Of a DNA stretch of 64,000 nt, positions 6,416 through 53,878 are shown piece after piece (positions within the stretch are counted from its first letter, which is position 1; each line of letters starts with the position of its first letter). The notes beneath the pieces are model-generated. The model did no database searches, had not been told where the DNA came from, and saw only the letters and a program-made list of their open reading frames with translations. The stretch lies in NCBI RefSeq assembly GCF_019904295.1, contig NZ_CP065359.1:1327001-1391000 (forward strand), written 5' to 3'. Origin of the DNA: Ruegeria sp. SCSIO 43209. GTDB taxonomy: Bacteria; Pseudomonadota; Alphaproteobacteria; Rhodobacterales; Rhodobacteraceae. A program made the translations under genes and the position numbers.

Positions 6416-6440
6416 CTTTTCTTCAGACGCTAAGAAATCT

Positions 6441-7976: not shown

Positions 7977-8030
7977 TCTGATGACGTGTTTCTGTGTTCC
8001 GTCAAAACCCATCTTGGAAAAGATACATCT

Positions 8031-9074: not shown

Positions 9075-9092
9075 TCTGACGGAGGGTGAATT

Positions 9093-10613: not shown

Positions 10614-10816
10614 TGACACCAAAACCCCAACAGCGAATCCGAAAGGACGATGTCCTGACCGTGCTTGGCTATGCGTTGCCGGTGCTCGGCGGCCTGTTGG
10701 GGGTTGCTTACGTCAATACCAAGTACATGGACTTCATAAACCCGGTTTGGGCAGTGGGCGCAGGCGCGTTGCTTGGATGGATCATCGCCCGCGTGATCCG
10801 CAAGGTGCTGGGATAA
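10613..10816 (+). CDS. Small two-helix membrane protein in the suf operon
   Basis: A 67-residue protein with a basic, polar start ([13 protein letters not shown]) and two hydrophobic helices (VLTVLGYALPVLGGLLGVAYV and NPVWAVGAGALLGWIIARV) ending in RKVLG. It overlaps sufB by one base and lies 51 bases before sufC, so it is certainly co-expressed with the scaffold genes. I do not know a function; membrane proteins are not part of the characterised SufBCD complex. Confidence 0.8.
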   Translation: MTPKPQQRIRKDDVLTVLGYALPVLGGLLGVAYVNTKYMDFINPVWAVGAGALLGWIIARVIRKVLG

Positions 10817-10867
10817 GAACTTATCGGGGCCGCAATGCGCCCCTTGCGAGATGCTAAAGGACAGAAA

Positions 10868-11623: not shown

Positions 11624-12903
11624 TGGCTTTGCCCCAAGCAAAACAAACGGCGACCGAGGAACGGCTGGCAGCGCTGACCATGCCGGATGCGGGATGCACA
11701 CGGAAAGCGCGCGAAGCCGCAATTGCACGTGTACGCGCGATGGGTTTGCCCAGTCGTCGAGATGAATACTGGAAATATACCCGTCCAGACACTCTGGTTT
11801 CTGCGGAAGCTCCCAGTGCTGCTTTGTTCAAAACGGATGAACCGGCTCTGTTCCACGCGCTCGACCGGCTGAAGATCGTTTTCATTGATGGCGTATTCAG
11901 CCCGGAAGACTCTGATGATCTGTCTCTGGAGGGTGTAACGATCGATCGGCTGGAAGATATCTGTTGCAAAGATATCCATTGGGCCAAAGAGTTATACGGC
12001 GTTCTTGAAGCAAAAGGCCAAAATCCAGTGGCGCGTCCCTTGGCGGCGCTGAACACGGCCTATGCATCTGACGGCGTTGCCATTCATGTATCTGGCAAGC
12101 CGAGCAAACCGATTAACCTGATTTATCGCCATGAATCCGAAACGTCGGATGCAATCCTGCATCATGTCGTTCGGGTTGAAAGCGGTGCCGAAGTCACGAT
12201 CCTTGAAAACGGACCCGCAGCTTCGCGCTTCAACAAATGCATGGAGATCGATATCGCCGACAATGGCACACTGCATCATATCCGTGCGCAGGGTCGGGAT
12301 CATCAACGCCGTGCGGCAACTCATATGTTCTCGCGGCTTGGTAAAGAATCCGTCTATAAATCCTTCACGCTGACCGTGAACGGAGTTTTAACGCGAAACG
12401 AGCAAGTCGTCGAACTGACGGGTGACGATGCGGTCGCGCACGTGGCGGGTGCGTGTGTTGGAGATGGTGATTTTCTCCATGATGACACGGTCTTTGTCAC
12501 CCATGATGCGGTGAATTGCGAAAGCCGCCAAGTGTTCAAGAAGGTGCTTCGCAACGGGGCGACGGGTGTTTTTCAGGGCAAGATCTTGGTAAAGGAAGGC
12601 GCTCAGAAAACCGACGGTTACCAGATCAGCCAGTCGTTGCTTCTGGACGATGATAGTCAGTTCCTCGCCAAACCCGAGCTCGAGATTTACGCCGATGACG
12701 TTGCGTGTTCGCACGGTTCGACCTCGGGCGCCATTGATGAAACGGCTTTGTTCTACCTGCGCTCCCGTGGCGTCCCAACGGCAGAAGCAACCGACATGTT
12801 GACACTGGCCTTCCTGGCTGAAGCCGTTGATGAAATCGAGGACGAGGATCTGGCAGCTGATATCGTGTCCCGATTGCAAGATTGGCTGGCACGCCGACGC
12901 TGA
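11623..12903 (+). CDS. sufD: Fe-S cluster assembly protein SufD
   Basis: A 426-residue partner of SufB in the scaffold. The N-terminal region has LPSRRDEYWKYTRPD, the usual SufD helical segment. The C-terminal beta-helix carries DDDSQFLAKPELEIYADDVACSHGSTSGAIDETALFYLRSRGV, which is the SufD signature including the conserved His (CSHG) at the SufB-SufD interface where clusters form. It starts inside the sufC stop and ends inside the start of the next membrane gene, so the order sufC-sufD-12.9 kb gene is tightly coupled. Confidence 0.96.
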   Translation: MALPQAKQTATEERLAALTMPDAGCTRKAREAAIARVRAMGLPSRRDEYWKYTRPDTLVSAEAPSAALFKTDEPALFHALDRLKIVFIDGVFSPEDSDDLSLEGVTIDRLEDICCKDIHWAKELYGVLEAKGQNPVARPLAALNTAYASDGVAIHVSGKPSKPINLIYRHESETSDAILHHVVRVESGAEVTILENGPAASRFNKCMEIDIADNGTLHHIRAQGRDHQRRAATHMFSRLGKESVYKSFTLTVNGVLTRNEQVVELTGDDAVAHVAGACVGDGDFLHDDTVFVTHDAVNCESRQVFKKVLRNGATGVFQGKILVKEGAQKTDGYQISQSLLLDDDSQFLAKPELEIYADDVACSHGSTSGAIDETALFYLRSRGVPTAEATDMLTLAFLAEAVDEIEDEDLAADIVSRLQDWLARRR

Positions 12904-16363: not shown

Positions 16364-17965
16364 ATGTCATTTGTTACCCGTGCTCGTTCAAGTGTTTTTA
16401 TCGCCGCTTTCCTTGTGGCTTCGGCCTCAGTCGCGCAGGCGGGGACGGATGGCACAGCGTTTCAAATGGCCGTTGCGGAAAGTGTGTCCAACAGCCCGGC
16501 AATTGCTGAGTTTTATCGCACAAACGGGTTTGATCCGGTTTGGGTTGGCGATACGCCCGAACATGCTGCACGACGCAAAGCCCTGATCGAAGCGCTTTCG
16601 ACGACCGATCTGCATGGATTGCCTGGGGCACGTTACGACGTCCAGACTTTGAAGACAAAGATGCAGGACGCGCGCAACACCCGTGATCTGGGCATGCTCG
16701 AGGCCGAGCTGACTCGGGTTTTTGTCAAATATGCCAGAGACTTGCATTCCGGTTCTGTAACGCCTTCGCAGATTGATCCCGGCCTAGTGCGGGCGGTGGA
16801 ACGACGCAGCGCCGCAGAGCATCTTGAACTGCTCGTTTCCAGCCAGGGTGATACCTATTTCAGGGATATGATGCCTCAATCGCGCCAGTATCTTGCGCTG
16901 TTGAAACAGAAGAAGGCGCTGGAAGCGCTGATGACACAAGGTGGCTGGGGCGAGACCGTTCCTGTCTCCAAGCTTGAGCTTGGGGACACAGGGAACAGTG
17001 TCATCAGGCTGCGCAATCGACTTGTCGCGATGGGTTATCTGAAGCCTACTGCCAGCCCAAACTATGATGATGCGCTGTTTGCGGCGGTGCAATCCTTTCA
17101 GGCTGCTCATGGTCTTGAGGCGGATGGCGTAGCTGGCAAAGGCACTATTTCCGAGATCAATCGCCCAGTTTCAGACCGCTTGAAAGCTGTTTACGTTGCG
17201 CTTGAACGGGAGCGCTGGTTACCCAAAGACCGTGGTGAGCGGCATATTCTGGTGAATCTGGCCGATTTTTCTGCCAAGATCGTCGATGACGGGCAGGTCA
17301 CGTTTGAGACTCGTGCCGTGATCGGCAAAAACACACATGATCGCCGAAGCCCAGAGTTCTCGGATGAGATGGAGCATATGGTGATCAACCCAAGTTGGTA
17401 TGTGCCACGCTCGATCATCACGAAGGAATATCTGCCGCAATTACGGGCCAATCCAAATGCTGTCGGCCATATCCAGATCACCGACCGCCGTGGCCGTCAG
17501 GTTAATCGTGGAGCGGTTGACTTTACCCAGTTCACTGCGCGTAATTTCCCGTTTTCCATGCGTCAGCCCCCCAGCAAAAGCAACGCACTGGGGCTGGTGA
17601 AGTTCATGTTCCCTAATAAGTACAACATCTATCTGCATGATACGCCTCAGAAATCTCTGTTCGCACGCGAGGTTCGGGCATTCTCGCATGGATGCATCCG
17701 TTTGGCGCAACCGTTCGAGTTTGCCTATAAGCTGCTGGCCAAGCAGGAAGAGGATCCAAAGGCGTTTTTCCACCGCGTGCTGAACACGGGCAAAGAAACG
17801 AAGGTTGAACTGGATAAAAAAATTCCGGTGCATCTGATTTATCGCACGGCCTATATTGGCCCCAAAGGCGAGGTGCAGTATCGCCGCGACGTGTATGACC
17901 GGGATCGCAAGATCTGGGAAGCGCTGCAAAAGGCAGGGGTGGTCCTGCCGGACGTTCAAGGGTAA
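16364..17965 (+). CDS. L,D-transpeptidase (YcbB/LdtD-like)
   Basis: A 533-residue periplasmic enzyme that makes 3-3 cross-links in peptidoglycan or attaches proteins to it. The start is the ATG of MSFVTRARSSVFIAAF, which gives a clean signal peptide (cut near ASVAQA); a TTG 21 bases upstream is less likely. The order is an N-terminal scaffold domain, a peptidoglycan-binding module (IRLRNRLVAMGYL to FQAAHGLEADGVAGKGT, about 16.99-17.16 kb), then the YkuD catalytic domain. That domain has an INPSWYVPRSI insert and the active-site motif FSHGCIRLAQP, with the catalytic cysteine codon at 17693-17695. The large size and module order match the YcbB class. It is monocistronic or leads into lpxD, 34 bases later. 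Confidence 0.92.
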   Translation: MSFVTRARSSVFIAAFLVASASVAQAGTDGTAFQMAVAESVSNSPAIAEFYRTNGFDPVWVGDTPEHAARRKALIEALSTTDLHGLPGARYDVQTLKTKMQDARNTRDLGMLEAELTRVFVKYARDLHSGSVTPSQIDPGLVRAVERRSAAEHLELLVSSQGDTYFRDMMPQSRQYLALLKQKKALEALMTQGGWGETVPVSKLELGDTGNSVIRLRNRLVAMGYLKPTASPNYDDALFAAVQSFQAAHGLEADGVAGKGTISEINRPVSDRLKAVYVALERERWLPKDRGERHILVNLADFSAKIVDDGQVTFETRAVIGKNTHDRRSPEFSDEMEHMVINPSWYVPRSIITKEYLPQLRANPNAVGHIQITDRRGRQVNRGAVDFTQFTARNFPFSMRQPPSKSNALGLVKFMFPNKYNIYLHDTPQKSLFAREVRAFSHGCIRLAQPFEFAYKLLAKQEEDPKAFFHRVLNTGKETKVELDKKIPVHLIYRTAYIGPKGEVQYRRDVYDRDRKIWEALQKAGVVLPDVQG

Positions 17966-17999
17966 TCACGAGGCAAATCCCGCCACGAGGACGCCCGAC

Positions 18000-19091
18000 A
18001 TGCAGTTTACCGTTCAACAAATCGCCGATTCCCTGGGGGTCGTCGCAGAAGGCCAGACTGGCCTGACCATCTTGCGGGCAGCCGAGCCGGGAGATGCCGG
18101 GCCAACCGATCTGGCCATGGCGATGTCGCCAAAATATGCTGAAGCTTTGGAGACCGGTTCAGCACGGGCCGCGGTTTTGTGGGATGGCGCGGACTGGAAA
18201 GCACTGGGGCTTGAGGCCGCCATTTTTGTGCAACGCCCCCGCATGGCGATGGCAGGGATCACCGCGATGCTGGATCGCGGGCAGGGGATTGCGCCGGGAA
18301 TTCATCCATCGGCTGTCATTGATGAAACCGCCGAGATCGGGGTAGACGTATCGGTCGGCCCGCTTGCTGTTATCGGTGCGCGCGCGCGCGTCGGCGCGGG
18401 TTCGGTTATCGGCGCGCATTGCGTGATCGGTATGGATGCGTCGCTTGGTGAAAACGCTCTGCTGCGCGAAATGGTCAGCATCGGTGCGCGGGCTCAAATC
18501 GGTGATCGCTTTATCGCGCAGCCGGGTGCCCGTATCGGCGGGGACGGTTTCAGCTATGTCACACCAGAAGTCTCGGGTGCCGAAAATGCGCGGAAAACTC
18601 TGGGTGATCAGGGGGATGCAAAGGCGCAAAGCTGGTTGCGCATCCATTCGCTGGGTGCGGTCGAGATTGGCGACGACGTCGAAGTCGGCTCGAACTGCAC
18701 TGTCGACAACGGGACCATACGCAATACTGTAATCGGAAGTGGATCGAAACTGGATAATCTTGTCCACGTGGGACACAACACCCGAGTCGGGCAGGATTGT
18801 TTGTTATGTGGTCAAACCGGCGTTTCTGGTTCGGTCGAGATTGGCAATAACGTGGTACTGGGTGGTCAGACTGGTGTTGTCGATAATATTTTCATCGGTG
18901 ATGGCGTGATTGCCGGTGGCGGCACCAAGATTCTGTCAAATGTTCCAGCTGGTCGCGTGATCATGGGCTACCCGGGCATTAAAATGGAAAGCCATACCGA
19001 GATATATAAAGCCCAACGTCGTCTGCCCCGATTGTCGCGCGACGTCGAGGCGTTGAAAAAGGCTGTTTTCAAACAGCCTTCAAGTGATTAA
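18000..19091 (+). CDS. lpxD: LpxD-type UDP-3-O-acyl-glucosamine N-acyltransferase
   Basis: A 363-residue left-handed beta-helix acyltransferase. LpxD adds a 3-hydroxyacyl chain from ACP to the 2-amino group of UDP-3-O-acyl-glucosamine, the third step of lipid A synthesis. The start is ATG after GAGGA. It has an N-terminal uridine-binding domain, many I/V-G-x-x hexapeptide repeats (residues about 105-320), and the catalytic His in DNLVHVGHNTRVG. The usual lpxD neighbours (bamA, fabZ, lpxA) are absent. Instead an acyl carrier protein and a ketosynthase follow at once, so this may be a second, specialised LpxD. Its last codons contain a 10-bp inverted repeat (19059-19080). Confidence 0.85.
   Translation: MQFTVQQIADSLGVVAEGQTGLTILRAAEPGDAGPTDLAMAMSPKYAEALETGSARAAVLWDGADWKALGLEAAIFVQRPRMAMAGITAMLDRGQGIAPGIHPSAVIDETAEIGVDVSVGPLAVIGARARVGAGSVIGAHCVIGMDASLGENALLREMVSIGARAQIGDRFIAQPGARIGGDGFSYVTPEVSGAENARKTLGDQGDAKAQSWLRIHSLGAVEIGDDVEVGSNCTVDNGTIRNTVIGSGSKLDNLVHVGHNTRVGQDCLLCGQTGVSGSVEIGNNVVLGGQTGVVDNIFIGDGVIAGGGTKILSNVPAGRVIMGYPGIKMESHTEIYKAQRRLPRLSRDVEALKKAVFKQPSSD
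19059..19080 (+). terminator. Inverted repeat at the 3' end of lpxD
   Basis: The perfect arms AAGGCTGTTT and AAACAGCCTT are separated by two bases, inside the last codons of lpxD and 43 bases before the acp start. It could partly stop or slow transcription and set the lpxD to acp ratio, or stabilise the upstream message. There is no U-tract, so full termination is unlikely. Confidence 0.35.
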
Positions 19092-45196: not shown

Positions 45197-46426
45197 ATGA
45201 ACGCTCCAGATACAAAGCCTGTCCTGCGCGCAAAAGATGCGCCTGACCTTGGACGTTTCAACTGGGACGACCCGTTTCGCTTGTCGGACCAGTTGGAAGA
45301 GGATGAACGCCTGATTGCCGACAGCGCGCGCGCTTACGCCCAGGAGAAATTGCAGCCGCGTGTCACCAAGGCTTTTGCAAACGAAGAAACCGATCCCGAG
45401 ATCTTTCGTGAAATGGGTGAAATGGGGCTGTTGGGCACGACAATCCCGGAAGAATATGGTGGGATCGGTGCGAGCTACGTATCTTATGGACTGGTGGCGC
45501 GGGAAGTTGAACGGGTGGATTCCGGCTATCGCTCGATGATGTCGGTGCAAAGCTCGTTGGTGATGTACCCGATTTTCGCCTATGGCAGCGAAGAACAGCG
45601 TCGCAAATATCTGCCGAAACTGGCAAGTGGCGAATGGATTGGGTGTTTTGGCCTGACAGAGCCGGATGCGGGTTCGGACCCGGCGGCGATGAAGACCCGT
45701 GCCGAGAAGATTGATGGCGGGTATCGTCTGACCGGCAGCAAGATGTGGATTTCAAACGCACCGATCGCAGATGTCTATGTGGTCTGGGCCAAGTCAGATG
45801 CGCATGACGGCAAGATTCGTGGATTCGTGCTGGATAAAGGCACCAAGGGCCTGAGCGCACCGAAGATCGAGAACAAGCTGAGCCTGCGTACTTCGATCAC
45901 AGGTGAAATTGTCATGGATGGCGTTGAGGTGGACGAGGGCGCTTTGCTTCCACATGTTCAGGGTCTCAAGGGACCGTTCGGCTGCCTGAACCGCGCACGC
46001 TATGGTATCAGCTGGGGTGCGATGGGGGCCGCGGAATGCTGCTGGCACGCAGCGCGTCAATACGGCTTGGATCGTAAACAGTTCAATCGACCACTTGCGC
46101 AGACCCAGTTGTTTCAATGCAAACTGGCAGAGATGCAGACCGAAATCTCTTTGGGACTGCAAGCAAGCTTGCGCGTCGGCCGACTGATGGATCAGGCTGA
46201 AGCTGCGCCCGAGATGATCTCGATCATCAAACGTAACAATTGCGGCAAGGCATTGGACATTGCGCGGATGTCGCGTGACATGCACGGCGGCAACGGTATC
46301 TCACTTGAGTTCCAGGTGGTGCGTCACATGATCAATCTTGAGACAGTCAACACCTATGAGGGCACGCACGACGTTCATGCATTGATCCTGGGGCGGGCGC
46401 AAACCGGACTACAGGCATTTTACTGA
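45197..46426 (+). CDS. gcdH: Glutaryl-CoA dehydrogenase
   Basis: A 409-residue FAD enzyme of the acyl-CoA dehydrogenase family that oxidises and decarboxylates glutaryl-CoA to crotonyl-CoA in lysine, tryptophan and glutarate breakdown. The acyl-CoA dehydrogenase signatures are [19 protein letters not shown] and the catalytic Glu388 in [20 protein letters not shown], the GcdH version of the active site. [20 protein letters not shown] at the N-terminus is typical too. Its stop lies only 12 bases before the dif-like left attachment site of the prophage. Confidence 0.95.
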
Positions 46427-46438: not shown

Positions 46439-46466
46439 TACTCGTATAATCGGTAGTATGGTAATC
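46439..46466. repeat. attL, dif-like XerCD site
   Basis: It has dif architecture: an 11-base XerC-type arm TACTCGTATAA, a 6-base core TCGGTA and an 11-base XerD-type arm GTATGGTAATC. Compare E. coli dif with GGTGCGCATAA, TGTATA and TTATGTTAAAT. It shares ten identical bases (ATAATCGGTA, 46446-46455) with attR. The left arm should be chromosomal and the right arm phage-derived. Confidence 0.8.
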
Positions 46467-46494
46467 GCATTGCGACAACTACATCTTGTCCCAC

Positions 46495-46527
46495 GCCCTA
46501 TTCGTTTCACAGAAATCTGGATAGGGC
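46495..46527. repeat. Inverted repeat near attL (phage side)
   Basis: The arms GCCCTAT (46495-46501) and ATAGGGC (46521-46527) are perfect, 19 bases apart, then GGTTTTTCG follows. It could be an operator in the phage intergenic region or a weak terminator for gcdH. Confidence 0.4.
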
Positions 46528-46617
46528 AAGCGGTTTTTCGCTGTTAGGGTCTATTTTCTTTTTATGCATTGACGGTGTGTCTTTTCTACCACCGGTTGCG
46601 CTAGTTTCGCATTGAGA

Positions 46618-46662
46618 CAAGTGCGGTTATGCGCGCGCTTCGCGCGCGCATAACCGCACTTG
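46618..46662. repeat. Perfect 21-bp stem hairpin (phage intergenic region)
   Basis: The arms 46618-46638 and 46642-46662 are perfect reverse complements, with a three-base loop TTC. The arm begins CAAGTGCGG and ends in alternating GC. There is no T-run after it, so it is not a simple terminator. Such a stable hairpin in a microvirus intergenic region is a candidate for the second-strand (complementary-strand) origin or a packaging signal. Confidence 0.75.
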
Positions 46663-46702
46663 AAAATGAGCAGATTGTGCAGCAAAGCTGCCCATCATAG
46701 CT

Positions 46703-46760
46703 GCTTCGCGGTCCTCCGTGCTCAGGGGTGTACCACCCCCTCCGCGCGGAGACACGAAGC
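46703..46760. repeat. Cloverleaf-like fold in the phage intergenic region
   Basis: The outer stem GCTTCG/CGAAGC (46703-46708 with 46755-46760) encloses two hairpins: GGGGTG-TAC-CACCCC (46725-46739) and CTCC-GCGC-GGAG (46740-46751, which is also a perfect 12-base palindrome). It is not a tRNA. It could be a phage origin or packaging element together with the neighbouring 21-bp hairpin. Confidence 0.55.
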
Positions 46761-46971
46761 TTACCTCACCGTTTATTGTACGCTTAAACGCCGGTCTGGA
46801 TGCGTCGTCACTGTAGCGCTTAGTTACCGCACATGCGCGCAGACGCGCGCGTTATTTCGCTTAAATCAAGGCCGCTGAAATGTGTTTGTGATCATAGATC
46901 ACAAGCCACATGTCAGGACCTTGACCCCAAGCGACCACTACGCGTGGGGCGCGTTCGCCACGTGGCAGAAC

Positions 46972-46994
46972 GGATAAGCGCAAGCCGCTTATCC
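46972..46994. repeat. 9-bp hairpin before the plus-strand phage ORFs
   Basis: The arms GGATAAGCG (46972-46980) and CGCTTATCC (46986-46994) have a five-base loop and end 24 bases before the 58-aa ORF. Possible operator or leader structure of the plus-strand unit. Confidence 0.5.
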
Positions 46995-47018
46995 ATTCAG
47001 CAACGAAAGGTGACTATT

Positions 47019-47195
47019 ATGAACCGTAATTCCATGATCAAACGCATCGAGTCTGCCAAATATGATCTTGACGCTGTGATCCAGGATCTTAGGGAGGCCC
47101 AAGCCGAAGATTTCGCTCAAGGGTTCTATTTCAACGAAGCCTATGCGGAGGCCGCTATCCGTAAGATCCGCGTTGTTCTGGATGCTATTCGATGA
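47019..47195 (+). CDS. Prophage ORF, 58 aa, opposite strand to the phage structural genes
   Basis: MNRNSMIKRIESAKYDLDA onward: a small, charged, helical protein with no motif I can name. AAAGG lies eight bases before the ATG. The frame could be extended upstream to 46833, but that runs through the hairpin zone and has no Shine-Dalgarno. It overlaps the next ORF by four bases (ATGA), so the pair is a real operon. Microviruses normally code on one strand only, so this unit is unusual. A regulator for lysogeny is possible, but nothing in the sequence proves it. Confidence 0.65.
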   Translation: MNRNSMIKRIESAKYDLDAVIQDLREAQAEDFAQGFYFNEAYAEAAIRKIRVVLDAIR

Positions 47196-47386
47196 TGTCG
47201 CCCGAGGAACTGTCCGCCGTCACCCGCCGTTTATCTAAGCGGGTGTACGCGGATCGTGAACTTGCTAAACGCAATGGCGATAAGGAATGGCTAGACCGTC
47301 TCAACGAGGAACTTTATGTCCTGCGTCTAGCCCTTCGTTTGGATAGTAAGACGCTAAAGCGCCTTACTATGGGGAAGGATTTCTAG
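47192..47386 (+). CDS. Prophage ORF, 64 aa, coupled to the 58-aa ORF
   Basis: MMSPEELSAVTRRLSKRVYA onward: a basic, helical protein rich in R, K, L and E, with no Cys and no membrane segment. It starts inside the stop of the 58-aa ORF. The composition would fit a small DNA- or protein-binding factor. A hairpin with a short T-run follows at 47428-47460. Not recognised as a family. Confidence 0.65.
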   Translation: MMSPEELSAVTRRLSKRVYADRELAKRNGDKEWLDRLNEELYVLRLALRLDSKTLKRLTMGKDF

Positions 47387-47835
47387 GTCTTTTTGCACCA
47401 TGGGATGAATTCCCGACTTCCGCCCTTGCCCCGTCTTGCTTCGCGCGAGTCGGGGCGTTCTTTGCAAACCTTCCTTTCTCGTGCGCGTTCCGGTTCCCTG
47501 ATCGAATTTGCAAGATGCCCTTGCTCATGCACCGAAGGTTTCTTTGTGGGCGTCGTCGTTTTTGTAGGCGCAGTGATAGTTGCAGATGTCGAGACTGCGC
47601 CACCAGTCCTCGTAACTGCGCCGCTCTCCCTTGGCTCGCTTTTCCTGATATGAGTATCTGGCGATGTAATCCGCAGCCTTGAGGCCGTCCTTCGCTTCAG
47701 CGTTAAGTCCTCTGTAGCATTTGCGGCACGGGTAGATGCCGCCGCAGCGTTTGCGGATCTTCGCCTTCCAGTGGCCGAGTTTTTCTTGCCACGCTCTTTC
47801 GTCGTATTCTTGTTCGTATTCCTCGATTTCGCCAT
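47383..47835 (-). CDS. Possible overlapping basic ORF in the 3' end of rep
   Basis: A 150-codon ORF in the +1 frame relative to rep, beginning MAKSRNTNKNTTKERGKK, with AAGGA seven bases before the ATG. It runs 142 bases past the rep stop. The predicted product is very rich in R, K, S, T and A, which is what a DNA-packaging protein (like the small basic J protein of phiX174) would need. The overlapping part may be a chance shadow of rep codon use, so confidence is low; the unshared 3' part is the stronger hint. Confidence 0.25.
   Translation of the reverse strand: MAKSRNTNKNTTKERGKKNSATGRRRSANAAAASTRAANATEDLTLKRRTASRLRITSPDTHIRKSEPRESGAVTRTGGAVSTSATITAPTKTTTPTKKPSVHEQGHLANSIREPERARERKVCKERPDSREARRGKGGSREFIPWCKKT
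47428..47460 (+). terminator. Hairpin between convergent phage genes
   Basis: The stem GCCCCG (47428-47433) and CGGGGC (47451-47456) can extend by two pairs across a mismatch, and GTTCTTT follows on the plus strand. It probably ends the plus-strand two-gene unit. Confidence 0.55.
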
Positions 47836-48736
47836 AGATCAATCCTTCCCAATCTTTTTCCACTACTGACACGGACGCCAACAAAGCGTTCCATTGCGGG
47901 CAATCCTGCCCGTATTTCTGATTCCGTAGCTTGTTGATGTGATGCAGCCGATTCAGGAGATATTCGCGCTGCTTTCCCTTGGGATACCAATAGCCGGAAT
48001 AGTCGGGCACGTTCAGATTGAGCGTTACCGGCACAATCAGCTTGCGTTCCCATTCTTCACATTTGCGCTCTAACCACCGGAACCCGATGGGTGGCACCTT
48101 TGACATGCGGAAGTACGAGGCTCCGTCATTCTCTGACTTGGCCTCTCGCATGGTGCCTTTCGAGTTCACTACGTTGAACTGATCTTTCAGGGCGTACTTG
48201 AGCACATATGCCAAGGTTCCCTGATCGGGGTTATCTGTCGTTACGTGTCCATGCGGCCAGTACTGCCAGTGATCCCGGTAGTATTCCTTGCTATTCGGTT
48301 TTCGCCCTGGGCGATTGCCCGGGATTACCTTATCGTTGTTTTCGTCCTTCCACACACCAAGGTGCTTGAATGGACGCTCTCCGAATATGATCATGTGCCA
48401 ATGGACCCGGCCCCTCTTTGATCCGCGTTCGCCTGCAACGACATATGAAATCTCGCCGCGCGTGGTGTATGTTCTGTAATACTCTTCACGAAGGCTTTTA
48501 AGGAACGCTTGTACATCACTATAATGAAAGGCCTTTGCCCTTGGGGGCAGGGTGCCATCTGCATTGTTTCTGTAGGTGAGATTGATAACCAATGTCTCAG
48601 CTACAACTGTTTTTTCTGCCATCCCGCGCGCGACCCAATCGTTTTTCCGCGCTTTGATGCAGTCGTTACACCGACGGCAGGCAAACTGTATGTATTCGCC
48701 TTTGTCGTTGTACGTGTATTGAGGATTAGAGCACAT
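47525..48736 (-). CDS. Microvirus replication initiator (VP4, HUH endonuclease)
   Basis: A 403-residue rolling-circle replication protein. The N-terminal CxxC pair (CRRCNDCIKARKNDWVARG, residues 20-38) is typical of microvirus VP4. The HUH metal motif is H112-W-H114 in GRVHWHMIIFGE, and the nicking tyrosines are Y177 and Y181 in LAYVLKYALKD. It cuts the phage origin in double-stranded DNA and joins the ends after each round. It follows the 127-aa ORF by 12 bases on the same strand. Complete length, no frameshift. Confidence 0.93.
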   Translation of the reverse strand: MCSNPQYTYNDKGEYIQFACRRCNDCIKARKNDWVARGMAEKTVVAETLVINLTYRNNADGTLPPRAKAFHYSDVQAFLKSLREEYYRTYTTRGEISYVVAGERGSKRGRVHWHMIIFGERPFKHLGVWKDENNDKVIPGNRPGRKPNSKEYYRDHWQYWPHGHVTTDNPDQGTLAYVLKYALKDQFNVVNSKGTMREAKSENDGASYFRMSKVPPIGFRWLERKCEEWERKLIVPVTLNLNVPDYSGYWYPKGKQREYLLNRLHHINKLRNQKYGQDCPQWNALLASVSVVEKDWEGLIYGEIEEYEQEYDERAWQEKLGHWKAKIRKRCGGIYPCRKCYRGLNAEAKDGLKAADYIARYSYQEKRAKGERRSYEDWWRSLDICNYHCAYKNDDAHKETFGA

Positions 48737-48748
48737 TATGTTTTCGTC

Positions 48749-49132
48749 CTAAGTGTCAGTAAGTGCATACAGGATCAAGGGGGTATGGGGGCGCGATCCC
48801 GTCCGGTTTATCCAAACACGGACGTGATCGCTGTACAGGCGCTGGCGCATTTCATTTGCCACCACCTGATTTAACAAATCGCATTGGGTCGGGCAGGGCT
48901 TGCGCCCGCCCGGTGTGGCCCAGCTACCTAGTCCACCCTCATATTCATGTCCCCGTTGCTGATAGACGCGGTACGTCTCGCGATCGCGATTTGTGATGTA
49001 TTGCTTCCATGGCCGCTTAGGCGGCTCCGATCGCCGCTCATAGCTTGGCTTTGGCCCCGTACCTTTCGGCCAGTACAGATCGCTTGTCGCGGGCCGTACT
49101 GGCCATGGCGCGTATGGTGTTGGCCAGTTCAT
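48749..49132 (-). CDS. Prophage protein, 127 aa, unknown
   Basis: Starts MNWPTPYAPWPVRPATSDL; the N-terminal half is rich in Pro, Trp and Arg, and the C-terminal half is more globular (CDLLNQVVANEMRQRLYSDHVRVW). There is no signal peptide or membrane helix. It overlaps the M15 peptidase gene by four bases and is 12 bases before rep. It occupies the place of small non-structural genes (VP5-like) in other microviruses, but I see no similarity that would justify that name. Confidence 0.75.
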   Translation of the reverse strand: MNWPTPYAPWPVRPATSDLYWPKGTGPKPSYERRSEPPKRPWKQYITNRDRETYRVYQQRGHEYEGGLGSWATPGGRKPCPTQCDLLNQVVANEMRQRLYSDHVRVWINRTGSRPHTPLILYALTDT

Positions 49133-49746
49133 TTATGCTTGTACCCGCGCGCACAGCGTCGGGCCAATTCGGGCAAGACTTCCTCAAACCTTACCCAAAG
49201 CTCTAGCTGGTTGGGCGGGCGGGGCTTGCCCTCTAAGCCGATTGTAGCGCGGTGTCGGTCACGCTGTTTCTTCCAGTCTGCAAGCTGGATATGTGCAGCG
49301 TCATAGAAACGCTCTTCCGGATCGTCATAAACGGGAATGCCGTTGTCATTCCAATCGTGTCCATGGATCAGATTGACACCGTATTTCGCCTCTATGACGC
49401 GCATACAGGCATTGAGCGTTAGCCAGTATTTCCGGCTGACGTTCCAGCCCAATGACGGATGGATAATGTCCACCGCCTCATAATATTGGTGCGGGCTTTC
49501 CCATGGGCCCGCTTTTGTGCGGCCCTCTATGCGTAATTGCTTTTGTCGCTCAGGTGTTCGGTAACACTCGCTGATCTTAGCCGGATAACCGGCATCCTCC
49601 ATGGCCTTAACGATCTGTTGGCCGAGGTAGAACATGGGTCCGTCTTTGTAGCAGTACCGCGTCTGTCGTTTCGGCACCTGCATTTTCTCGTATGGCCACA
49701 CGTGACGTAGTGCGGCACGAAACAAACCTTGGGGTTTGAGTTTCAT
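49129..49746 (-). CDS. M15-type peptidase, endolysin-like, of the microvirus
   Basis: A 205-residue protein with the zinc-peptidase pattern of the M15 group: ISECYRTPERQKQL (59-72), then H86 and D93 in SPHQYYEAVDI and H152 in DAAHIQLADW. These are the zinc ligands of D,D-carboxypeptidase-like enzymes that cut the peptide part of peptidoglycan. The usual SxHxxGxAxD has Glu in place of Gly, but the ligands are intact. There is no signal peptide, so a release helper or virion location would be needed. Likely used for cell lysis or for entry. AAAGGA lies eight bases before the ATG. Confidence 0.85.
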   Translation of the reverse strand: MKLKPQGLFRAALRHVWPYEKMQVPKRQTRYCYKDGPMFYLGQQIVKAMEDAGYPAKISECYRTPERQKQLRIEGRTKAGPWESPHQYYEAVDIIHPSLGWNVSRKYWLTLNACMRVIEAKYGVNLIHGHDWNDNGIPVYDDPEERFYDAAHIQLADWKKQRDRHRATIGLEGKPRPPNQLELWVRFEEVLPELARRCARGYKHK

Positions 49747-49771
49747 TTTGTAGTTCCTTTGCTCGATGGGC

Positions 49772-49789
49772 GAGGGCCGTTAGGCCCTC
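49772..49789 (-). repeat. Intercistronic hairpin before the peptidase gene
   Basis: The perfect arms GAGGGCC (49772-49778) and GGCCCTC (49783-49789) have loop GTTA, in the gap between the 175-aa gene and the peptidase gene. No T-run. It may protect or cut the phage message, or lower expression of the distal genes. Confidence 0.55.
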
Positions 49790-49819
49790 TATCAACCACG
49801 GTTGCAGCTGCACCCGTTC

Positions 49820-50347
49820 TTACTCTGTTTGCGTTTCATTGACGTTTTGTTCCCGTGTTTCACGGGTTTCGCGCGCCGTCTCGGGGCTTTCCTGCGCCTC
49901 TTGCCGCTGGGTCGTTTCATTGGTTTCCTCCTCGATTACCTGCGGTTCTCTGGCCTGCGACCGCAGTACCTTTTCCATATTCGCCATTCGGCGTTCATTG
50001 GCCTTGTTTTGTGCCGTGGCGGCCTTCACGACCTTCATTAGTTCGAGATGCTCAGGGCTTGCCTTTGTCGGCTTGTATTCGGGGTTGGCTGCGGTGTTGA
50101 ACGCCGCTGCACCATAGCCCTGCGTTTGTACGCGCCGCCCGCTCGCTAGAAGGGCTGTCACGTTTTCTACAAGTTCGAATGTATCGCCCTTGTTCGCATA
50201 ACGGACGTATCCTATGCCCTCATGTACGCCGGGTGTTAGGCCCAGTACGAACTGGGTTTCACCCTTTTCATCTACGCAGGCGATATTTCCACCCGGATGC
50301 GCCACTGCCAGTTTTGCGGCTGCGAACTCTCGTTGTGTGAGTTTCAT
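49820..50347 (-). CDS. Prophage 175-aa protein with charged tail (scaffold candidate)
   Basis: Starts MKLTQREFAAAKLAVAHPGG. Residues 1-85 look globular. Residues 95-130 are an amphipathic helix (ELMKVVKAATAQNKANERRMANMEKVL). The last 45 residues are almost all E, T, R, Q and N (QEAQESPETARETRETREQ), highly charged and disordered. In microviruses the internal scaffold gene (VP3) is next to the capsid gene, and scaffolds are small, helical and charged, so scaffold is the best guess; sequence similarity was not seen. It lies 68 bases after VP1, with a hairpin between. Confidence 0.7.
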   Translation of the reverse strand: MKLTQREFAAAKLAVAHPGGNIACVDEKGETQFVLGLTPGVHEGIGYVRYANKGDTFELVENVTALLASGRRVQTQGYGAAAFNTAANPEYKPTKASPEHLELMKVVKAATAQNKANERRMANMEKVLRSQAREPQVIEEETNETTQRQEAQESPETARETRETREQNVNETQTE

Positions 50348-50380
50348 GTTGTTCTCCTATAACTTTGTTTCCGTGATAGC

Positions 50381-50404
50381 GGAAAACGCCAGCTGACGTT
50401 CTCC
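50381..50404 (-). repeat. Hairpin after the capsid gene
   Basis: On the minus strand GGAGAACG pairs with CGTTTTCC (one G-T pair) around an eight-base loop; 12 bases after the VP1 stop. Probably a partial terminator or processing site in the phage operon. Confidence 0.45.
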
Positions 50405-50415
50405 GTTATTGTGGA

Positions 50416-51972
50416 TTATTCGGTTTCCTCAAAAACGTCCTCGTCTCCGATTACTGCCAGTTCTTCGACCGGGGTAGGTCCGAAGATCAGCGGCGTATCC
50501 GCCCTGAATATGCTTGTGATGCTGTACTGACAGACTTCGACACCCGGGGAGTGATCCTTGAACGGGTAATGATCCAAATCCTCTGGATAGAGGATGTTGT
50601 CTGGATCAACCGATGCTGGCACCTCCAGTTGCCAGATTGCGGTTTTGTTCTCGACTGTCGTCGGATCGAGTTGCCTTGAGAACCCATAGTTCACATAGGT
50701 CTTTTTCAGGTGGTTGTTGCCGTTGTAGCAGACAATGGTTTCCTCATCCGCCTGCGCCACATCGGAGCGGATTTGACGCGCCATTACGGGCTGTGGGTCT
50801 ACGTTCAGTTCGTCTGCTACGTAGTTGATCTTGCCCCATGGCTGAGCAAGGATCGGGTGCGGCTGTGAACCCAGCGTCTCATCGGGCTTGATTACTGCAA
50901 AGGTGATTACCACACCGCCAAATTCTGACGCTGGGATCGGCACCGTAAACGCCAAGGTGTCCTCGGGTTCCGTTTGCTCCTGTCCGAGACTCGGGCCGTC
51001 CGTGGCGCTGATCATTCCACCGCCTAGGGTGATTTCGTTTTCATAGATCACAAACGGCTGCTTTTCGACTTCCAGCTTCAAGCCGTGTGCGTAACGAACA
51101 ACCTGTTCTTCACCGTATTGCGGATTATCATCGACCATTTTCCGCATCTTGCGTGTGAGCCGATCACGTTGCTCGGCAAGATAGAAATCCGTGACAGTCA
51201 AGCCTGTTGCGGGTAGATCTCCGTAGACATCGGGGTGGCCGGGATTGTTTGGGTCTTCTTTGATCCACCGTCCTTCTCCGCTGTCTGTTCGTGCCCAGTC
51301 ACCATCTTGGGTTTCCCCCTCTGTGACATTCACTGTTCCGGCTGTCGTGGTCAGTGTTCCGTCTGTAAAGCCGATACCCTTCATATTAATACGGCCTTCG
51401 ATGTGCACCGCGCCATTCACGCGATCATCGGGGTCCAGCACTGCGTTCAGCCGATCCAAGACGGTCGGGCCGATTAGGGCAGGGGTGACGGTCATGCAGG
51501 TGTTGTCCAGGAGCGTTGCCTTGACGTATTTGCGTTGCCGCAAATGGTTGATTGCCGCGATGTAGGACAGACGGACAATCTCACAGACCTTTTTTACGCC
51601 ATTAATCGAGATAGGCTCGACACTGAGGCGCTTGGTGATTTCGTTTTCATCCTCGTATCCAAACACAGGAGTGTCGGAGAGGTATTTTTCTCGGAAGATT
51701 TCCACGTTGCCGGGGTGATCAGCCTCGGGGTTTTTGATGATGTCCGCTGCGATCGCCGGGACATAGACCGAGATCAGTTCTGCAGTGATTTCCGTACGCA
51801 GCCGTCCCGCGATGGGGTCCAGTTCATATTCGCAGATTTGTGTGAGGCTTCCGACCTCACTGGGGCCGACTGCGACGGCCATAACAGGGGCTAGTTTGCC
51901 ACCTGCAAAGCGTCCGTGTGGGCTTTGCACCTCACGCCGCTTGTTCTTTGGGATCATATAATCTGAGCGCAT
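50416..51972 (-). CDS. Microvirus major capsid protein (VP1, F-like)
   Basis: A 518-residue protein, the usual length for a microvirus capsid protein that forms a jelly roll with long loops. Recognisable points are the start (PKNKRREVQSPHGRFAGGKLAPVMAVAVGPSEVG), the segment AELISVYVPAIAADIIKNPE, the VQVWQI-like IWQLEVPASVDPDNILYP and the C-terminal HSPGVEVCQYSITSIFRADTPLIFGPTP. Sixty copies build the T=1 shell. GGAG lies seven bases before the first ATG; a second in-frame ATG (MIPKNKRR) lies 15 bases inside. Confidence 0.93.
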   Translation of the reverse strand: MRSDYMIPKNKRREVQSPHGRFAGGKLAPVMAVAVGPSEVGSLTQICEYELDPIAGRLRTEITAELISVYVPAIAADIIKNPEADHPGNVEIFREKYLSDTPVFGYEDENEITKRLSVEPISINGVKKVCEIVRLSYIAAINHLRQRKYVKATLLDNTCMTVTPALIGPTVLDRLNAVLDPDDRVNGAVHIEGRINMKGIGFTDGTLTTTAGTVNVTEGETQDGDWARTDSGEGRWIKEDPNNPGHPDVYGDLPATGLTVTDFYLAEQRDRLTRKMRKMVDDNPQYGEEQVVRYAHGLKLEVEKQPFVIYENEITLGGGMISATDGPSLGQEQTEPEDTLAFTVPIPASEFGGVVITFAVIKPDETLGSQPHPILAQPWGKINYVADELNVDPQPVMARQIRSDVAQADEETIVCYNGNNHLKKTYVNYGFSRQLDPTTVENKTAIWQLEVPASVDPDNILYPEDLDHYPFKDHSPGVEVCQYSITSIFRADTPLIFGPTPVEELAVIGDEDVFEETE

Positions 51973-52014
51973 TTCGAGTCTCCGTTTTGCTCTGGTTTTG
52001 AAAAAGGGAAGGGG

Positions 52015-52839
52015 TTACGGATACAGCTTTCGCATGTGTTCCGTGTATTCTGGCGTTCCCCATTTTGGGGCGCGAATTAGTGATTTTCGCTTAGGTCGCG
52101 CCTTTGGGCGCCTAGGTCCCTTTATGGTCCCTAGTTCCGGCAGTTTTGAGCGGCGTTGCCCCTCTTTTTCTACCCACTTTTTGAAGTTCTTTACCGCATC
52201 GGCCCCCGCTATCGGGATGCCGATTATTGAGCCAAGTAAATCGCCATAGCGTTGCTCAAACTTTTCGGCGTCATCGAACTTATCTCGATCAAGCTCGAAG
52301 TCTCCGCCGCCAACCCGGAGATTACCCCCAGCAGGAACAGTACCCCCACTGTTATCATGATCGCCTTGAGCATTTGAACCTCGTTGATAAATACCGCCAT
52401 CCGGCACATTCAACTTATGCTCTTCATTGGCTTTTTCCAAGCGCTGTCTTTCAAGTTCCAGTCCAGCGCGTTCTGCCTGAAGGGCTTCGACCCCCAAAAG
52501 GGTATCTGAGGCTGCGGCCAAATGGTTGATGCGTTTTGACGACATGACGCCGCCTGTTACGGCCGATGATCCGCCGCCCGAATAGGCGTCAGGGGCACCG
52601 CCCAAGGGGTTGAACCCGGCCTTTTCCATGCCTTTACGCATGAGGCCCCATTTTTCGAGTTCCCATTGCTTTTGGCCTTGCCGTGCACGATTGAAAGCCT
52701 TCTTTGCGAAAGCGTCGTTTAGCTTGGCCATCCAACGGGTGTCGCTCTTGTCGAGACGATCACCTTTGCCGCCAAATAGTCCCTTAATGCCTTGGGCGGC
52801 ACTAAGGGCTATTCCGGCCCCCTCTAGGAAGCCGACCAT
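52015..52839 (-). CDS. Microvirus DNA pilot protein (VP2, H-like)
   Basis: A 274-residue minor virion protein that forms the tube for DNA injection. The N-terminal stretch has a small Gly/Ala-rich hydrophobic segment (FLEGAGIALSAAQGIKGLFGG). Then comes the hallmark VP2 motif WGLMRKGMEKAGFNPLGGAPDAYSGG (about residues 64-89) and a coiled-coil segment (LQAERAGLELERQRLEKANEEHK). The C-terminal tail is basic (RRPKARPKRKSLIRAPKWG). AGGAGG, located in the end of the 40-aa ORF, is seven bases before the ATG. A second ORF is embedded in another frame at 52224-52373. Confidence 0.92.
   Translation of the reverse strand: MVGFLEGAGIALSAAQGIKGLFGGKGDRLDKSDTRWMAKLNDAFAKKAFNRARQGQKQWELEKWGLMRKGMEKAGFNPLGGAPDAYSGGGSSAVTGGVMSSKRINHLAAASDTLLGVEALQAERAGLELERQRLEKANEEHKLNVPDGGIYQRGSNAQGDHDNSGGTVPAGGNLRVGGGDFELDRDKFDDAEKFEQRYGDLLGSIIGIPIAGADAVKNFKKWVEKEGQRRSKLPELGTIKGPRRPKARPKRKSLIRAPKWGTPEYTEHMRKLYP
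52224..52373 (-). CDS. Embedded membrane-helix ORF in VP2, lysis-gene candidate
   Basis: A 49-codon ORF in the +1 frame inside VP2, on the same strand. It has a single strong N-terminal membrane helix (MLKAIMITVGVLFLLG, then VISGLAAE) and a polar Ser-rich tail (SSLIEISSMTPKS). GAGG lies five bases before the ATG, a proper Shine-Dalgarno. The lysis gene E of phiX174 is likewise a small membrane protein embedded in another gene in a different frame. The host gene here is Gly-rich, and +1 frames of Gly codons can give hydrophobic codons by chance, so this remains a candidate. A longer start at 52409 exists without a ribosome site. Confidence 0.45.
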   Translation of the reverse strand: MLKAIMITVGVLFLLGVISGLAAETSSLIEISSMTPKSLSNAMAIYLAQ

Positions 52840-52962
52840 TTAGAAGCCTCCTGAACAGAAGGCTTGAAAGACGTGCGGTTGCAGGGTAGCTACCAAGCCA
52901 CCGGCAATACCAGCAATGACAGGGATCATTGCTTTTGCGCTGATTTCCTTTGCCTTTGACAT
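52840..52962 (-). CDS. 40-aa hydrophobic phage protein before VP2
   Basis: MSKAKEISAKAMIPVIAGIA onward: a basic start, then one Gly/Ala-rich hydrophobic helix, and a short tail ending FCSGGF. GGAG lies nine bases before the ATG, and its last codons contain the strong AGGAGG of VP2; VP2 starts directly after the TAA. First gene of the phage operon, 28 bases from attR. It could be a small virion or membrane protein. No family recognised. Confidence 0.7.
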   Translation of the reverse strand: MSKAKEISAKAMIPVIAGIAGGLVATLQPHVFQAFCSGGF

Positions 52963-52989
52963 ACCTGTTTTCTCCACTTGTGGTTTATA

Positions 52990-53017
52990 AAGTGGGATAA
53001 TCGGTATTATGTATAAT
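52990..53017. repeat. attR, dif-like XerCD site
   Basis: The XerC-type arm AAGTGGGATAA, core TCGGTA and XerD-type arm TTATGTATAAT. The right arm is close to E. coli dif (TTATGTTAAAT) and should be chromosomal, the left arm phage-derived. Joining the left arm of attL with this right arm gives a good dif site for the empty chromosome. Confidence 0.8.
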
Positions 53018-53110: not shown

Positions 53111-53878
53111 ATGGTTCTGATTGGGAAGACCGTCGTCATCACTGGCGCTGCAAATGGCATAGGTAAAGGTCTTGCCAAGCGGTTCTCAGAAGAAGGTGCG
53201 CATGTAGTCTGCGCCGATATCGACCTTGCCGGCGCGCAGGCCGTGGCGGCGCAAATTGGCGGTGATGCACTCAGCTGTGATGTGTCCAAGGAAAGTGATA
53301 TTCGAAATCTGATTGAGACTGTCGAGGATACGATCGCTCCGATTGATTTATTCTGTGCCAATGCGGGAATACTCACCTTAGGTGGATTTGAAGTGCCGGA
53401 TGCTGAATGGGACCGCATCTGGCAGATCAACGTGATGTCTCATGTCTGGACCGCGCGGCACCTGGTCCCAAGGATGGTTGCGCGTGGTGGTGGTTATTTG
53501 ATGATCACAGCATCAGCGGCTGGATTGCTCAATCAACCCGGCGCAGCCCCTTATGGCGTAACCAAACATGCGGCTGTGGGTTTTGCTGAATGGGTTGCGA
53601 TGACCTATGGCGATAAAGGTCTCAGGGTTTCGGTTCTGTGTCCACAGGCCGTTCGGTCGGAGATGATACGTGGACATGAGGATTCGGTCGCCGCGATTGA
53701 CGGAATAATTGAACCTGATGAGGTCGCCCAAGCCTGTGTCGAGGCGCTGGCGGATGAACGTTTTTTGATTCTTCCGCATCCACAAGTGCTTGACTATATG
53801 CGTTTAAAAACAGAAGACTACGACCGATGGTTAGGTGGAATGATGAAGCTTAATCAAAGGTTTGCTGACAGTTCTTAG
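53111..53878 (+). CDS. Short-chain dehydrogenase/reductase
   Basis: A 255-residue Rossmann-fold oxidoreductase with the NAD(P) motif TGAANGIG (11-18), CANAG in the centre and the active-site YGVTK after a Ser in TASAAG. ADID after the second strand suggests NAD over NADP. The substrate is not predictable. First chromosomal gene right of the prophage; its 3' end overlaps the convergent thioesterase gene by four bases. Confidence 0.92.
   Translation: MVLIGKTVVITGAANGIGKGLAKRFSEEGAHVVCADIDLAGAQAVAAQIGGDALSCDVSKESDIRNLIETVEDTIAPIDLFCANAGILTLGGFEVPDAEWDRIWQINVMSHVWTARHLVPRMVARGGGYLMITASAAGLLNQPGAAPYGVTKHAAVGFAEWVAMTYGDKGLRVSVLCPQAVRSEMIRGHEDSVAAIDGIIEPDEVAQACVEALADERFLILPHPQVLDYMRLKTEDYDRWLGGMMKLNQRFADSS

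What the first reader, a model, noticed from the sequence alone, without database searches (positions are those of the whole stretch)
46439..53017. Complete, apparently intact microvirus prophage in an alphaproteobacterial chromosome
About 6.55 kb with VP2, VP1, a HUH replication protein, an M15 peptidase and small ORFs, all in open frames. Temperate microviruses are known in Bacteroidetes and enterobacteria, while roseobacter microviruses have mostly been described as lytic. The gene order (40-aa ORF, VP2, VP1, 175-aa, peptidase, 127-aa, rep) and the size differ from the common gokushovirus layout. This could be a new lineage.
Basis: partly seen in the sequence, partly recalled or inferred. 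Interest (0 to 1): 0.93.

Follow-up and report, generated by a model that had tools for sequence, protein, structure and literature searches.

The report
Tainavirus prophage at chromosome dif site
A small single-stranded-DNA virus, of a kind already known from marine bacteria, sits apparently intact in the spot where the bacterium finishes copying its chromosome, and such viruses carry DNA signposts pointing the same way as the chromosome around them.

Summary
It is not a new lineage in the strong sense: its capsid protein is 49-54% identical to Ebor and ICBM5 and falls with them in a supported clade (proposed subfamily Tainavirinae). Its sister is a prophage of Ruegeria sp. THAF57 (59%). A temperate tainavirus, Ebor, is already published. 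No integrase was found. It sits in the primary chromosomal dif: KOPS-type GGGNAGGG motifs flip polarity there, and 27 of 28 genus relatives that I read have a dif-like site just upstream of the same dehydrogenase gene. The best mechanism is XerC/XerD capture of a dif-like attP. New here, as far as I could search: (1) tainavirus genomes carry KOPS almost only on the strand pointing to the rebuilt dif (57 against 5 in 24 genomes or near-genomes), so the prophage extends the chromosome arm; (2) a structured block shared with THAF57 precedes two coupled small ORFs on the strand opposite to the virus genes, which are unrelated between the two phages.

The parts
46439..46466 (+). attL: dif-like site; XerC arm 46439-46449 (host), centre TCGGTA 46450-46455, XerD-like arm 46456-46466 (phage); the host/phage split is inferred
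   Evidence: Shares ATAATCGGTANTATG with attR, only 2 places in the genome; its XerD arm scores 5.4 on a profile of 27 relatives' empty sites, whose own range is 13.9-18.1
52990..53017 (+). attR: rebuilt dif; XerC arm 52990-53000 (phage), centre TCGGTA, XerD arm 53007-53017 (host)
   Evidence: Same centre as attL; XerD arm scores 13.5; close to the published Rhodobacter sphaeroides chromosome 1 dif (PMC2731167, one passage)
52840..52962 (-). 40-aa ORF, first gene of the virus
   Evidence: tblastn relatives in L040/L094 (41%), L043 (39%), L082 (48%), L085 (45%)
52015..52839 (-). VP2/H DNA pilot protein, 274 aa
   Evidence: Ebor VP2 E 2.5e-5; THAF57 39%
50416..51972 (-). VP1/F major capsid protein, 518 aa
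   Evidence: solved chains 9ffg and 9ffh (major capsid protein) E 7.5e-152 and 3.7e-151
49820..50347 (-). 175-aa protein of unknown function with relatives in many tainaviruses
   Evidence: 22-36%
49129..49746 (-). M15-type peptidoglycan peptidase (endolysin), 205 aa
   Evidence: phrog_465 2.3e-13; PDB 2mxz L-alanyl-D-glutamate peptidase 2.9e-4; H86, D93, H152 invariant in 5 sequences
48749..49132 (-). 127-aa ORF of unknown function; its end overlaps the conserved element before rep
48752..48779 (-). 28-nt conserved element before rep, candidate viral-strand origin
   Evidence: CTTG in 17 of 18 microviruses compared, GACA in 16 of 18; weak likeness to the phiX174 origin
47525..48736 (-). VP4/A replication initiation protein, 403 aa, HUH (H112, H114)
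   Evidence: PF23343 1.1e-16; alignment of 4
47383..47835 (-). J-like basic protein, 150 aa, overlapping the 3' end of rep in another frame
   Evidence: 29% to Ebor Gp10, noted in its record as present in the virion by MS; tblastn hit in 17 of 21 loci
47192..47386 (+). 64-aa ORF on the strand opposite to the virus genes
   Evidence: two-helix model, mean pLDDT 83.9 without an alignment; no match in 393 other family genomes, plasmids, phages, Pfam, PHROGs, NCBIfam, PADLOC
47019..47195 (+). 58-aa ORF, its stop overlapping the start of the 64-aa ORF
   Evidence: two-helix model, mean pLDDT 91.9 without an alignment; no match in 393 other family genomes, phages, Pfam, PHROGs, PADLOC; one sub-threshold GapR-like hit, E 0.026; not searched in plasmids
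46833..47010 (.). Structured block in front of the opposite-strand ORFs, conserved in two parts
   Evidence: 88% over 91 bp and 97% over 30 bp with THAF57; 46834-47030 folds with z -7.3 as RNA, -8.8 as DNA; similar hairpin plan in THAF57
46618..46662 (.). Perfect 21-bp inverted repeat with a 3-nt loop, taken as non-coding
48545..48552 (+). GGGNAGGG motif (others start at 48891, 51477, 52006), all on + and none on -
45197..46426 (+). Host acyl-CoA dehydrogenase-like gene, left flank (name by recognition, no family call made)
   Evidence: 90-97% in genus relatives, 83% in Mameliella
53111..53878 (+). Host short-chain dehydrogenase, right flank
   Evidence: PF00106 3.1e-42

Best explanation
[quoted passage not shown] Shown by sequence: the gene set, no integrase hit, two dif-like junctions with an identical 6-bp centre, an occupied-against-empty locus in relatives, and KOPS polarity flipping at the prophage. 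Inferred: after infection the double-stranded replicative form recombines its attP with dif; the right junction keeps the host XerD arm and becomes the working dif, while the left junction carries the phage's weaker XerD arm. Excision by the same enzymes restores a 6,551-bp circle. Rep then nicks at the conserved element before its gene for rolling-circle replication, VP1, VP2 and the J-like protein build the virion, and the M15 peptidase opens the cell. KOPS motifs in the virus genome point to the rebuilt dif, so that FtsK is not misled by the insert.
For: VP1 clade with Ebor and ICBM5, VP1 identities 48-54% to eight relatives, 59% to THAF57. att pattern at two places only in the genome. Dif-like site upstream of the same dehydrogenase in 27 of 28 genus relatives read. 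KOPS in 20-kb samples: 28 forward / 2 reverse before the prophage (8 samples), 5 / 41 after it (12 samples), p 1.7e-13; window flanks 12/0 and 0/4. Two Xer-type recombinase genes in the host. A different tainavirus lies beside the same acyl-CoA dehydrogenase in Mameliella sp. CS4. Flanks of 14 other tainavirus prophages: 42/3 and 2/40. In 13 of 13 tainavirus prophages whose two junctions I scored, window included, the host-like XerD arm is at the virion 5' end (8.0 to 17.7 against -18.9 to 5.4). KOPS inside 24 tainavirus genomes: 57 on the complement, 5 on the virion strand. Ebor is an isolated, dif-flanked prophage of the same subfamily (PMC11980548, passages).
Against: No reads, so neither excision nor particles are shown. 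Both Xer-type genes score below the curated XerD cut-off, so which is XerC and which XerD is not settled. GGGNAGGG as KOPS in this genus is inferred from polarity only. One locus, L085, does not show the KOPS flip (0/2 and 1/1); its 5' boundary was guessed and it was not in the junction scoring. Three of the 14 loci had no motif on one side (L057, L082, L038). A cruder score over both arms put the window's left site slightly above the right one (17.2 against 16.5). Which half of each junction is host rests on comparison with relatives, not on an isogenic empty site.
Confidence: 0.9

Rival explanations
1. A decayed or domesticated remnant that no longer excises or forms particles.
For: No evidence of mobility could be tested; the left XerD arm departs from dif; other genomes do hold partial or interrupted copies (G327, G214, G436).
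Against: VP1, M15 and rep align over their length with relatives and keep the invariant residues; att centres identical; the overlapping J-like frame is open too.
Confidence: 0.12
2. A lineage of its own, at subfamily rank, rather than a tainavirus.
For: VP1 is only 49-54% identical to named isolates; M15 lysin and no methylase, unlike Ebor; several forks inside the clade are unresolved.
Against: Clade with Ebor and ICBM5 supported 99/99, with CRPss roseobacter, Rhizobium and animal-associated microviruses outside it; like gene order.
Confidence: 0.05
3. The KOPS bias in tainavirus genomes is a by-product of base composition or of coding, not selection for chromosome polarity.
For: The 56 G6-A-N patterns together lean the same way (478 on virion, 924 on complement); a reversed control motif leans slightly (9 against 21, p 0.04); the shortage on the virion strand alone is not significant in synonymous shuffles (63 of 1000).
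Against: KOPS ranks first of the 56 patterns (p 3e-12); third-order Markov expectation is 6.7 and 16.3 against 5 and 57; synonymous shuffles of 76 long frames give 7.3 (sd 2.4) against 20 observed, 0 of 1000 reach it; 19 of 20 genomes with unequal counts agree, 4 are equal; 4 of the 5 wrong-way sites have a right-way site within 60 nt and look like hairpin stems; in Pseudogemmobacter humi two prophages in opposite orientation on either side of one dif hold 5/0 and 0/4, each pointing to it.
Confidence: 0.2
4. The opposite-strand ORFs at 47019-47386 are not genes; the region is only an origin, packaging or complementary-strand start structure.
For: No homologues found; the shared part is the structured block, not the ORFs; no clear pair in the other tails read.
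Against: In both phages a stop-coupled pair (58+64 and 59+68 aa) follows the block with a ribosome-binding-like stretch; such pairs arise in 14 and 19 of 2000 shuffles; codon-position G+C is like that of VP1; confident helical models of the two window proteins without alignment.
Confidence: 0.35

Closest known systems
Rhodobacter phage Ebor (PP754850; proposed Tainavirinae)
   Same: VP1 51%, rep 35%, same order of VP2, VP1, small genes, lysin, rep, overlapping virion protein; dif-flanked prophage
   Different: Ebor's lysin gives no match to the M15 protein; it has a putative methylase gene and an extra 84-aa gene; its prophage lies in the cbbII operon; no opposite-strand gene pair seen in its tail
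Ascunsovirus oldenburgi ICBM5 (OM782324)
   Same: VP1 54%, M15 45%, rep 42%
   Different: No dif-like site found in it; its founding paper could not be read
Prophage of Ruegeria sp. THAF57 (L080)
   Same: Sister in the tree (96/95), rep 61%, VP1 59%, shared structured block and an opposite-strand gene pair
   Different: Lies on another, 210-kb contig; the two opposite-strand genes are unrelated in sequence
Enterogokushovirus prophages of E. coli (PMC7062461)
   Same: Microviruses that integrate at dif by XerC/XerD without an integrase; variable XerD arm on the phage side (passages)
   Different: Another subfamily, 4316-4692 bp
Vibrio phages VGJphi and TLCphi
   Same: Works like them: one dif-like attP, XerC/XerD, reversible; TLCphi too has a divergent XerD arm and a dif-like centre (PMC4246890, passages)
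   Different: A filamentous and a satellite phage, not microviruses

Membership tests
Microviridae | VP1, VP2 and VP4 homologues | tested here: met
Microviridae | Circular ssDNA genome in a T=1 virion | not testable with these tools
   Needs culture; VP1 matches the major capsid protein chains 9ffg and 9ffh
Tainavirinae (proposed) | VP1 in the clade of Ebor and ICBM5 | tested here: met
   99/99 support, 24 of 36 rows
Tainavirinae (proposed) | Protein-sharing network placement, as used for Ebor | not tested
Xer-using integrative element (IMEX) | No own integrase; dif-like junctions with identical centre | tested here: met
Xer-using integrative element (IMEX) | Insertion in a dif site of the replicon | tested here: met
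   KOPS flip and empty site in relatives
Xer-using integrative element (IMEX) | XerC/XerD needed for integration or excision | not testable with these tools
   Bench test required
Gokushovirinae | VP1 of gokushovirus type | tested here: inconclusive
   Only the two tainavirus records matched over at least 80% of the query even at E<=10, whereas the phiMH2K gokushovirus VP1 finds 3134 records at that cover; no gokushovirus was put in the tree

The most novel reading that the evidence does not exclude
Dif-integrating microviruses are built to be part of the terminus. Their genomes carry host KOPS with the one polarity that suits the arm they land in, so FtsK is led through the prophage to the rebuilt dif. 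The Ruegeria branch has added a cassette readable only from double-stranded DNA: a structured leader with exchangeable pairs of small proteins on the strand opposite to the virus genes, used in the prophage state, for instance for immunity or lysogeny control.
Probability: 0.35. Interest if true: 0.7.

Novelty: new member of a known kind. Interest (0 to 1): 0.5.

Why it matters
It adds an example of a tainavirus in the primary dif of a 3.65-Mb chromosome of the Ruegeria group, and the comparison suggests that tainaviruses commonly live at replicon termini. That gives a direct way to find them (dif and the KOPS flip). The KOPS polarity of an ssDNA phage genome, if selected, shows that prophage life shapes these viruses; an adaptation of this sort has been reported for lambda-like prophages (recalled, not read), but I know of no report for microviruses.

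Tried and rejected
Rejected: new subfamily (tree); assembly artefact (long contig); the idea that the extra DNA at the same locus in L046 is another dif element (11 kb with sugar-transport-like genes lies between the acyl-CoA dehydrogenase and the single dif-like site there; gene names by eye). A first VP1 tree is discarded: the script took wrong-strand frames for several rows; one search replaces it. In one search the Ebor attP was missed because its site is imperfect; its record marks it. A crude two-arm score for dif sites did not separate the window's two junctions; a profile of the XerD arm from 27 empty sites did.

Led nowhere: single-protein scans of public contigs (no confirmed relative); homologues of the two + strand ORFs and of one THAF57 ORF (three weak hits); Rfam; exact-pattern scans for the structured block and DNA searches for it. 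I wished to test KOPS polarity in E. coli gokushovirus prophages; I found no record to start from (one search listed 20 of 3497 records) and stopped. The likeness of the element before rep to the phiX174 origin is weak by score: 6 of 6546 28-mers on the same strand do as well or better, itself included, and the other strand has a higher maximum.

Not found in print: 'microviridae' with 'KOPS' gave one paper, unrelated by its title and abstract start; 'KOPS, prophage, dif, polarity' gave four papers, of which I read passages of one (PMC5357621); 'prophages, orienting polar sequences, lambdoid' gave none. The library lacks most subscription papers, and the founding Tainavirinae paper (10.1093/ve/veac070) is not held; what I know of its abstract and of the lambda-like prophage KOPS work is recalled.
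Full report
WHAT IS THERE. The same arrangement exists in Ebor, whose Gp10 is noted in its record as found in the virion by mass spectrometry; identity is 29% to Ebor and 38% to the THAF57 prophage, and tblastn finds it in 17 of 21 relatives (the other four are L092 and L094, which hold VP1 fragments, and viral contigs L097 and L100). Their shared 15-mer pattern is found at these two places only in the 4.6-Mb genome. No integrase family was hit by the nine prophage proteins scanned. The distance between the sites is 6,551 bp.

HOST. The contig is 3,653,432 bp with dnaA at base 398. Genome G442, which the tool calls 'same genus', has a 210,182-bp contig with VP1 at 17000-18517; that is the length and place of contig NZ_CAIWNQ010000009.1 of Ruegeria sp. 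THAF57. So the window's organism shares a genus with that strain (inference).

CLASS. VP1 gives two hits at E<=1e-5 among 50,697 phage records, ICBM5 and Ebor, and matches two major capsid protein chains, 9ffg and 9ffh, among solved structures. In a tree of 36 VP1 rows, 24 rows including the window, Ebor and ICBM5 form a clade (99/99); outside it fall three CRPss roseobacter phages, a Rhizobium phage, four animal-associated microviruses, three microvirus loci in alphaproteobacterial genomes, and one long-branched seep sequence. The window's sister is the THAF57 prophage (96/95). Loci fetched twice from the same contig (L035/L095, L036/L086, L037/L088, L038/L089) were entered once; the fragments L039, L040, L041, L058, L092 and L094 were left out. 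The Ebor paper places Ebor in the proposed Tainavirinae together with Rhodobacteraceae prophages, and reports that its integration site is flanked by dif motifs (PMC11980548, passages). Relatives: 9 of 394 genomes of the family, one being the window's own and some matches weak or partial; 3 of 54 in the genus, the window's own and a fragment among them; 16 loci in the named genome collection; 5 viral contigs.

WHERE IT SITS. In relatives the acyl-CoA dehydrogenase and the short-chain dehydrogenase are neighbours with a dif-like site between (16 of 19 relatives have both genes in the fetched stretch; the intergenic stretch was printed for six, 120-137 bp long). I read 28 of the 51 genus relatives that have the short-chain dehydrogenase; 27 have the dif-like site just upstream of it, the 28th being G442, whose best match is only 62% identical and may be a paralogue. 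GGGNAGGG, the motif that acts as KOPS in E. coli and probably V. cholerae (PMC5357621 and PMC2533119, passages), is polar in this genome: in 20 samples of 20 kb, 28 forward and 2 reverse before the prophage, 5 and 41 after it (p 1.7e-13); within the window 12/0 to the left and 0/4 to the right. GC skew changes sign between the samples on either side, though one later sample is again slightly positive. I take this as the primary dif. Around 14 other tainavirus prophages the flanks total 42/3 and 2/40; one, L085, does not fit, and three have no motif on one side (for L085 and L090 one boundary was guessed, and for L038 the left side was not counted). In Mameliella sp. CS4 a different tainavirus lies beside the same acyl-CoA dehydrogenase (83%), so the locus has been hit at least twice.

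HOW IT GETS IN. A profile of the XerD arm from the 27 empty sites (own range 13.9 to 18.1) gives the window's right junction 13.5 and the left 5.4. So the left XerC arm and right XerD arm are taken as host, the right XerC arm and left XerD-like arm as phage (inference). In 13 of 13 tainavirus prophages scored, window included, the host-like XerD arm lies at the virion 5' end (8.0 to 17.7) and the weak one at the 3' end (-18.9 to 5.4); the window's weak arm is the mildest of them. I scored only loci where I had found both ends. This is the pattern of enterogokushoviruses, whose downstream dif motifs vary most in the spacer and XerD arm (PMC7062461, passages), and of TLCphi, whose integration is reversible (PMC4246890, passages). 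Two Xer-type genes exist in the host. Which recombinase acts first cannot be told from sequence.

KOPS INSIDE THE VIRUS. The prophage holds four GGGNAGGG, all on the + strand, that is, pointing to the right-hand, rebuilt dif. Alone this proves nothing. In 24 tainavirus genomes or near-genomes (145 kb; three are partial, 17 integrated, 7 free) there are 57 on the complement of the virion strand and 5 on the virion strand; the complement points to the virion 5' end, where the host-like dif arm lies. KOPS is the most skewed of the 56 patterns made of six G, one A and one N; the whole set leans the same way (478 against 924), so part of the bias is composition. A third-order Markov model expects 6.7 and 16.3. 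Shuffling synonymous codons in 76 long frames gives 7.3 (sd 2.4) complement-strand motifs against 20 seen, none of 1000 shuffles reaching it; the lack on the virion strand is not significant there (0 seen, 63 of 1000 as low). By genome, 19 lean one way, 1 the other (L090), 4 are equal. Two dif-flanked prophages of another lineage give 9 and 0. In Pseudogemmobacter humi (L082) a prophage of each lineage sits on either side of one dif, in opposite orientation; they hold 5/0 and 0/4, each set pointing to the shared dif. Six phages without a dif-like match give 4 and 2, but five have lower G+C. I take selection for arm polarity as likely (about 0.8), though no experiment bears on it. A like adaptation of lambda-like prophages is recalled, not read.

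THE OPPOSITE-STRAND CASSETTE. The virus genes here run on one strand. Between the J-like gene and attL lie two + strand frames of 58 and 64 aa, the stop of the first overlapping the start of the second, after AAAGGTG. THAF57 has 59 and 68 aa in the same place. The proteins show no local alignment, but two blocks of the 180 bases before them are 88% and 97% alike; the stretch folds far better than shuffles (z -7.3 as RNA, -8.8 as DNA) and keeps a long hairpin in both phages even where the sequence differs (two sequences only, so no covariation count). Stop-coupled pairs of this size appear in 14 and 19 of 2000 shuffles. Both window proteins are modelled as two-helix hairpins with mean pLDDT 92 and 84 from single sequences; helices model easily, so this is mild support. 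The other 20 of the 22 tails listed show no clear pair, by eye. Virion ssDNA cannot serve as template for these genes until it is made double-stranded; a role in the prophage or replicative form is therefore likely, its nature unknown. My guess is immunity or exclusion, by place and variability only.

REPLICATION. A 28-nt element before rep is kept in 17 of 18 microviruses for CTTG and 16 of 18 for GACA (counted by eye). Its place and form suggest the viral-strand origin; the numeric likeness to the annotated phiX174 origin is weak.

VERDICT. A real, apparently intact prophage of a known kind, in an instructive place. The lineage claim is not upheld. The KOPS polarity and the opposite-strand cassette are the parts worth following.

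Noticed in passing
L082 (Pseudogemmobacter humi), 438-12793: Two microvirus prophages of two different lineages lie back to back, in opposite orientation, on either side of one dif-like site, with further sites at the outer ends.
   Followed up: partly
L046 (G411), 830-11820: About 11 kb with sugar-transport-like and regulatory genes (names by eye) lies between the acyl-CoA dehydrogenase and dif; three other relatives (L044, L045, L054) lack the dehydrogenase within the fetched stretch.
   Followed up: partly
PMC8224337, passages: The Microviridae prophage reported there as identical in three roseobacter genera (5.4 kb, with phiX-type capsid, A and J families) looks like phiX174 sequencing spike-in rather than a prophage; this is my inference, not tested.
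   Followed up: no
window 49129-49746 against L056: The M15 lysin is 66% identical to that of a Tritonibacter mobilis plasmid prophage while VP1 is 49%: lysin genes seem to be exchanged. Ebor's lysin gives no match.
   Followed up: partly
L056, L057, L058; L080: Tainavirus sequences also lie on plasmids (Tritonibacter mobilis p2, two Rhodovulum plasmids) and on the 210-kb contig of THAF57; KOPS flip at L056 and L080, L057 has motifs on one side only, L058 was not counted.
   Followed up: partly
L039/L040 (G327), L041 (G214), L115 (G436), L092: Partial or interrupted copies of tainavirus VP1, some at contig ends; not examined further.
   Followed up: no
window 46618-46662: Perfect 21-bp hairpin without a T run on either side; perhaps a complementary-strand start or packaging structure.
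   Followed up: no
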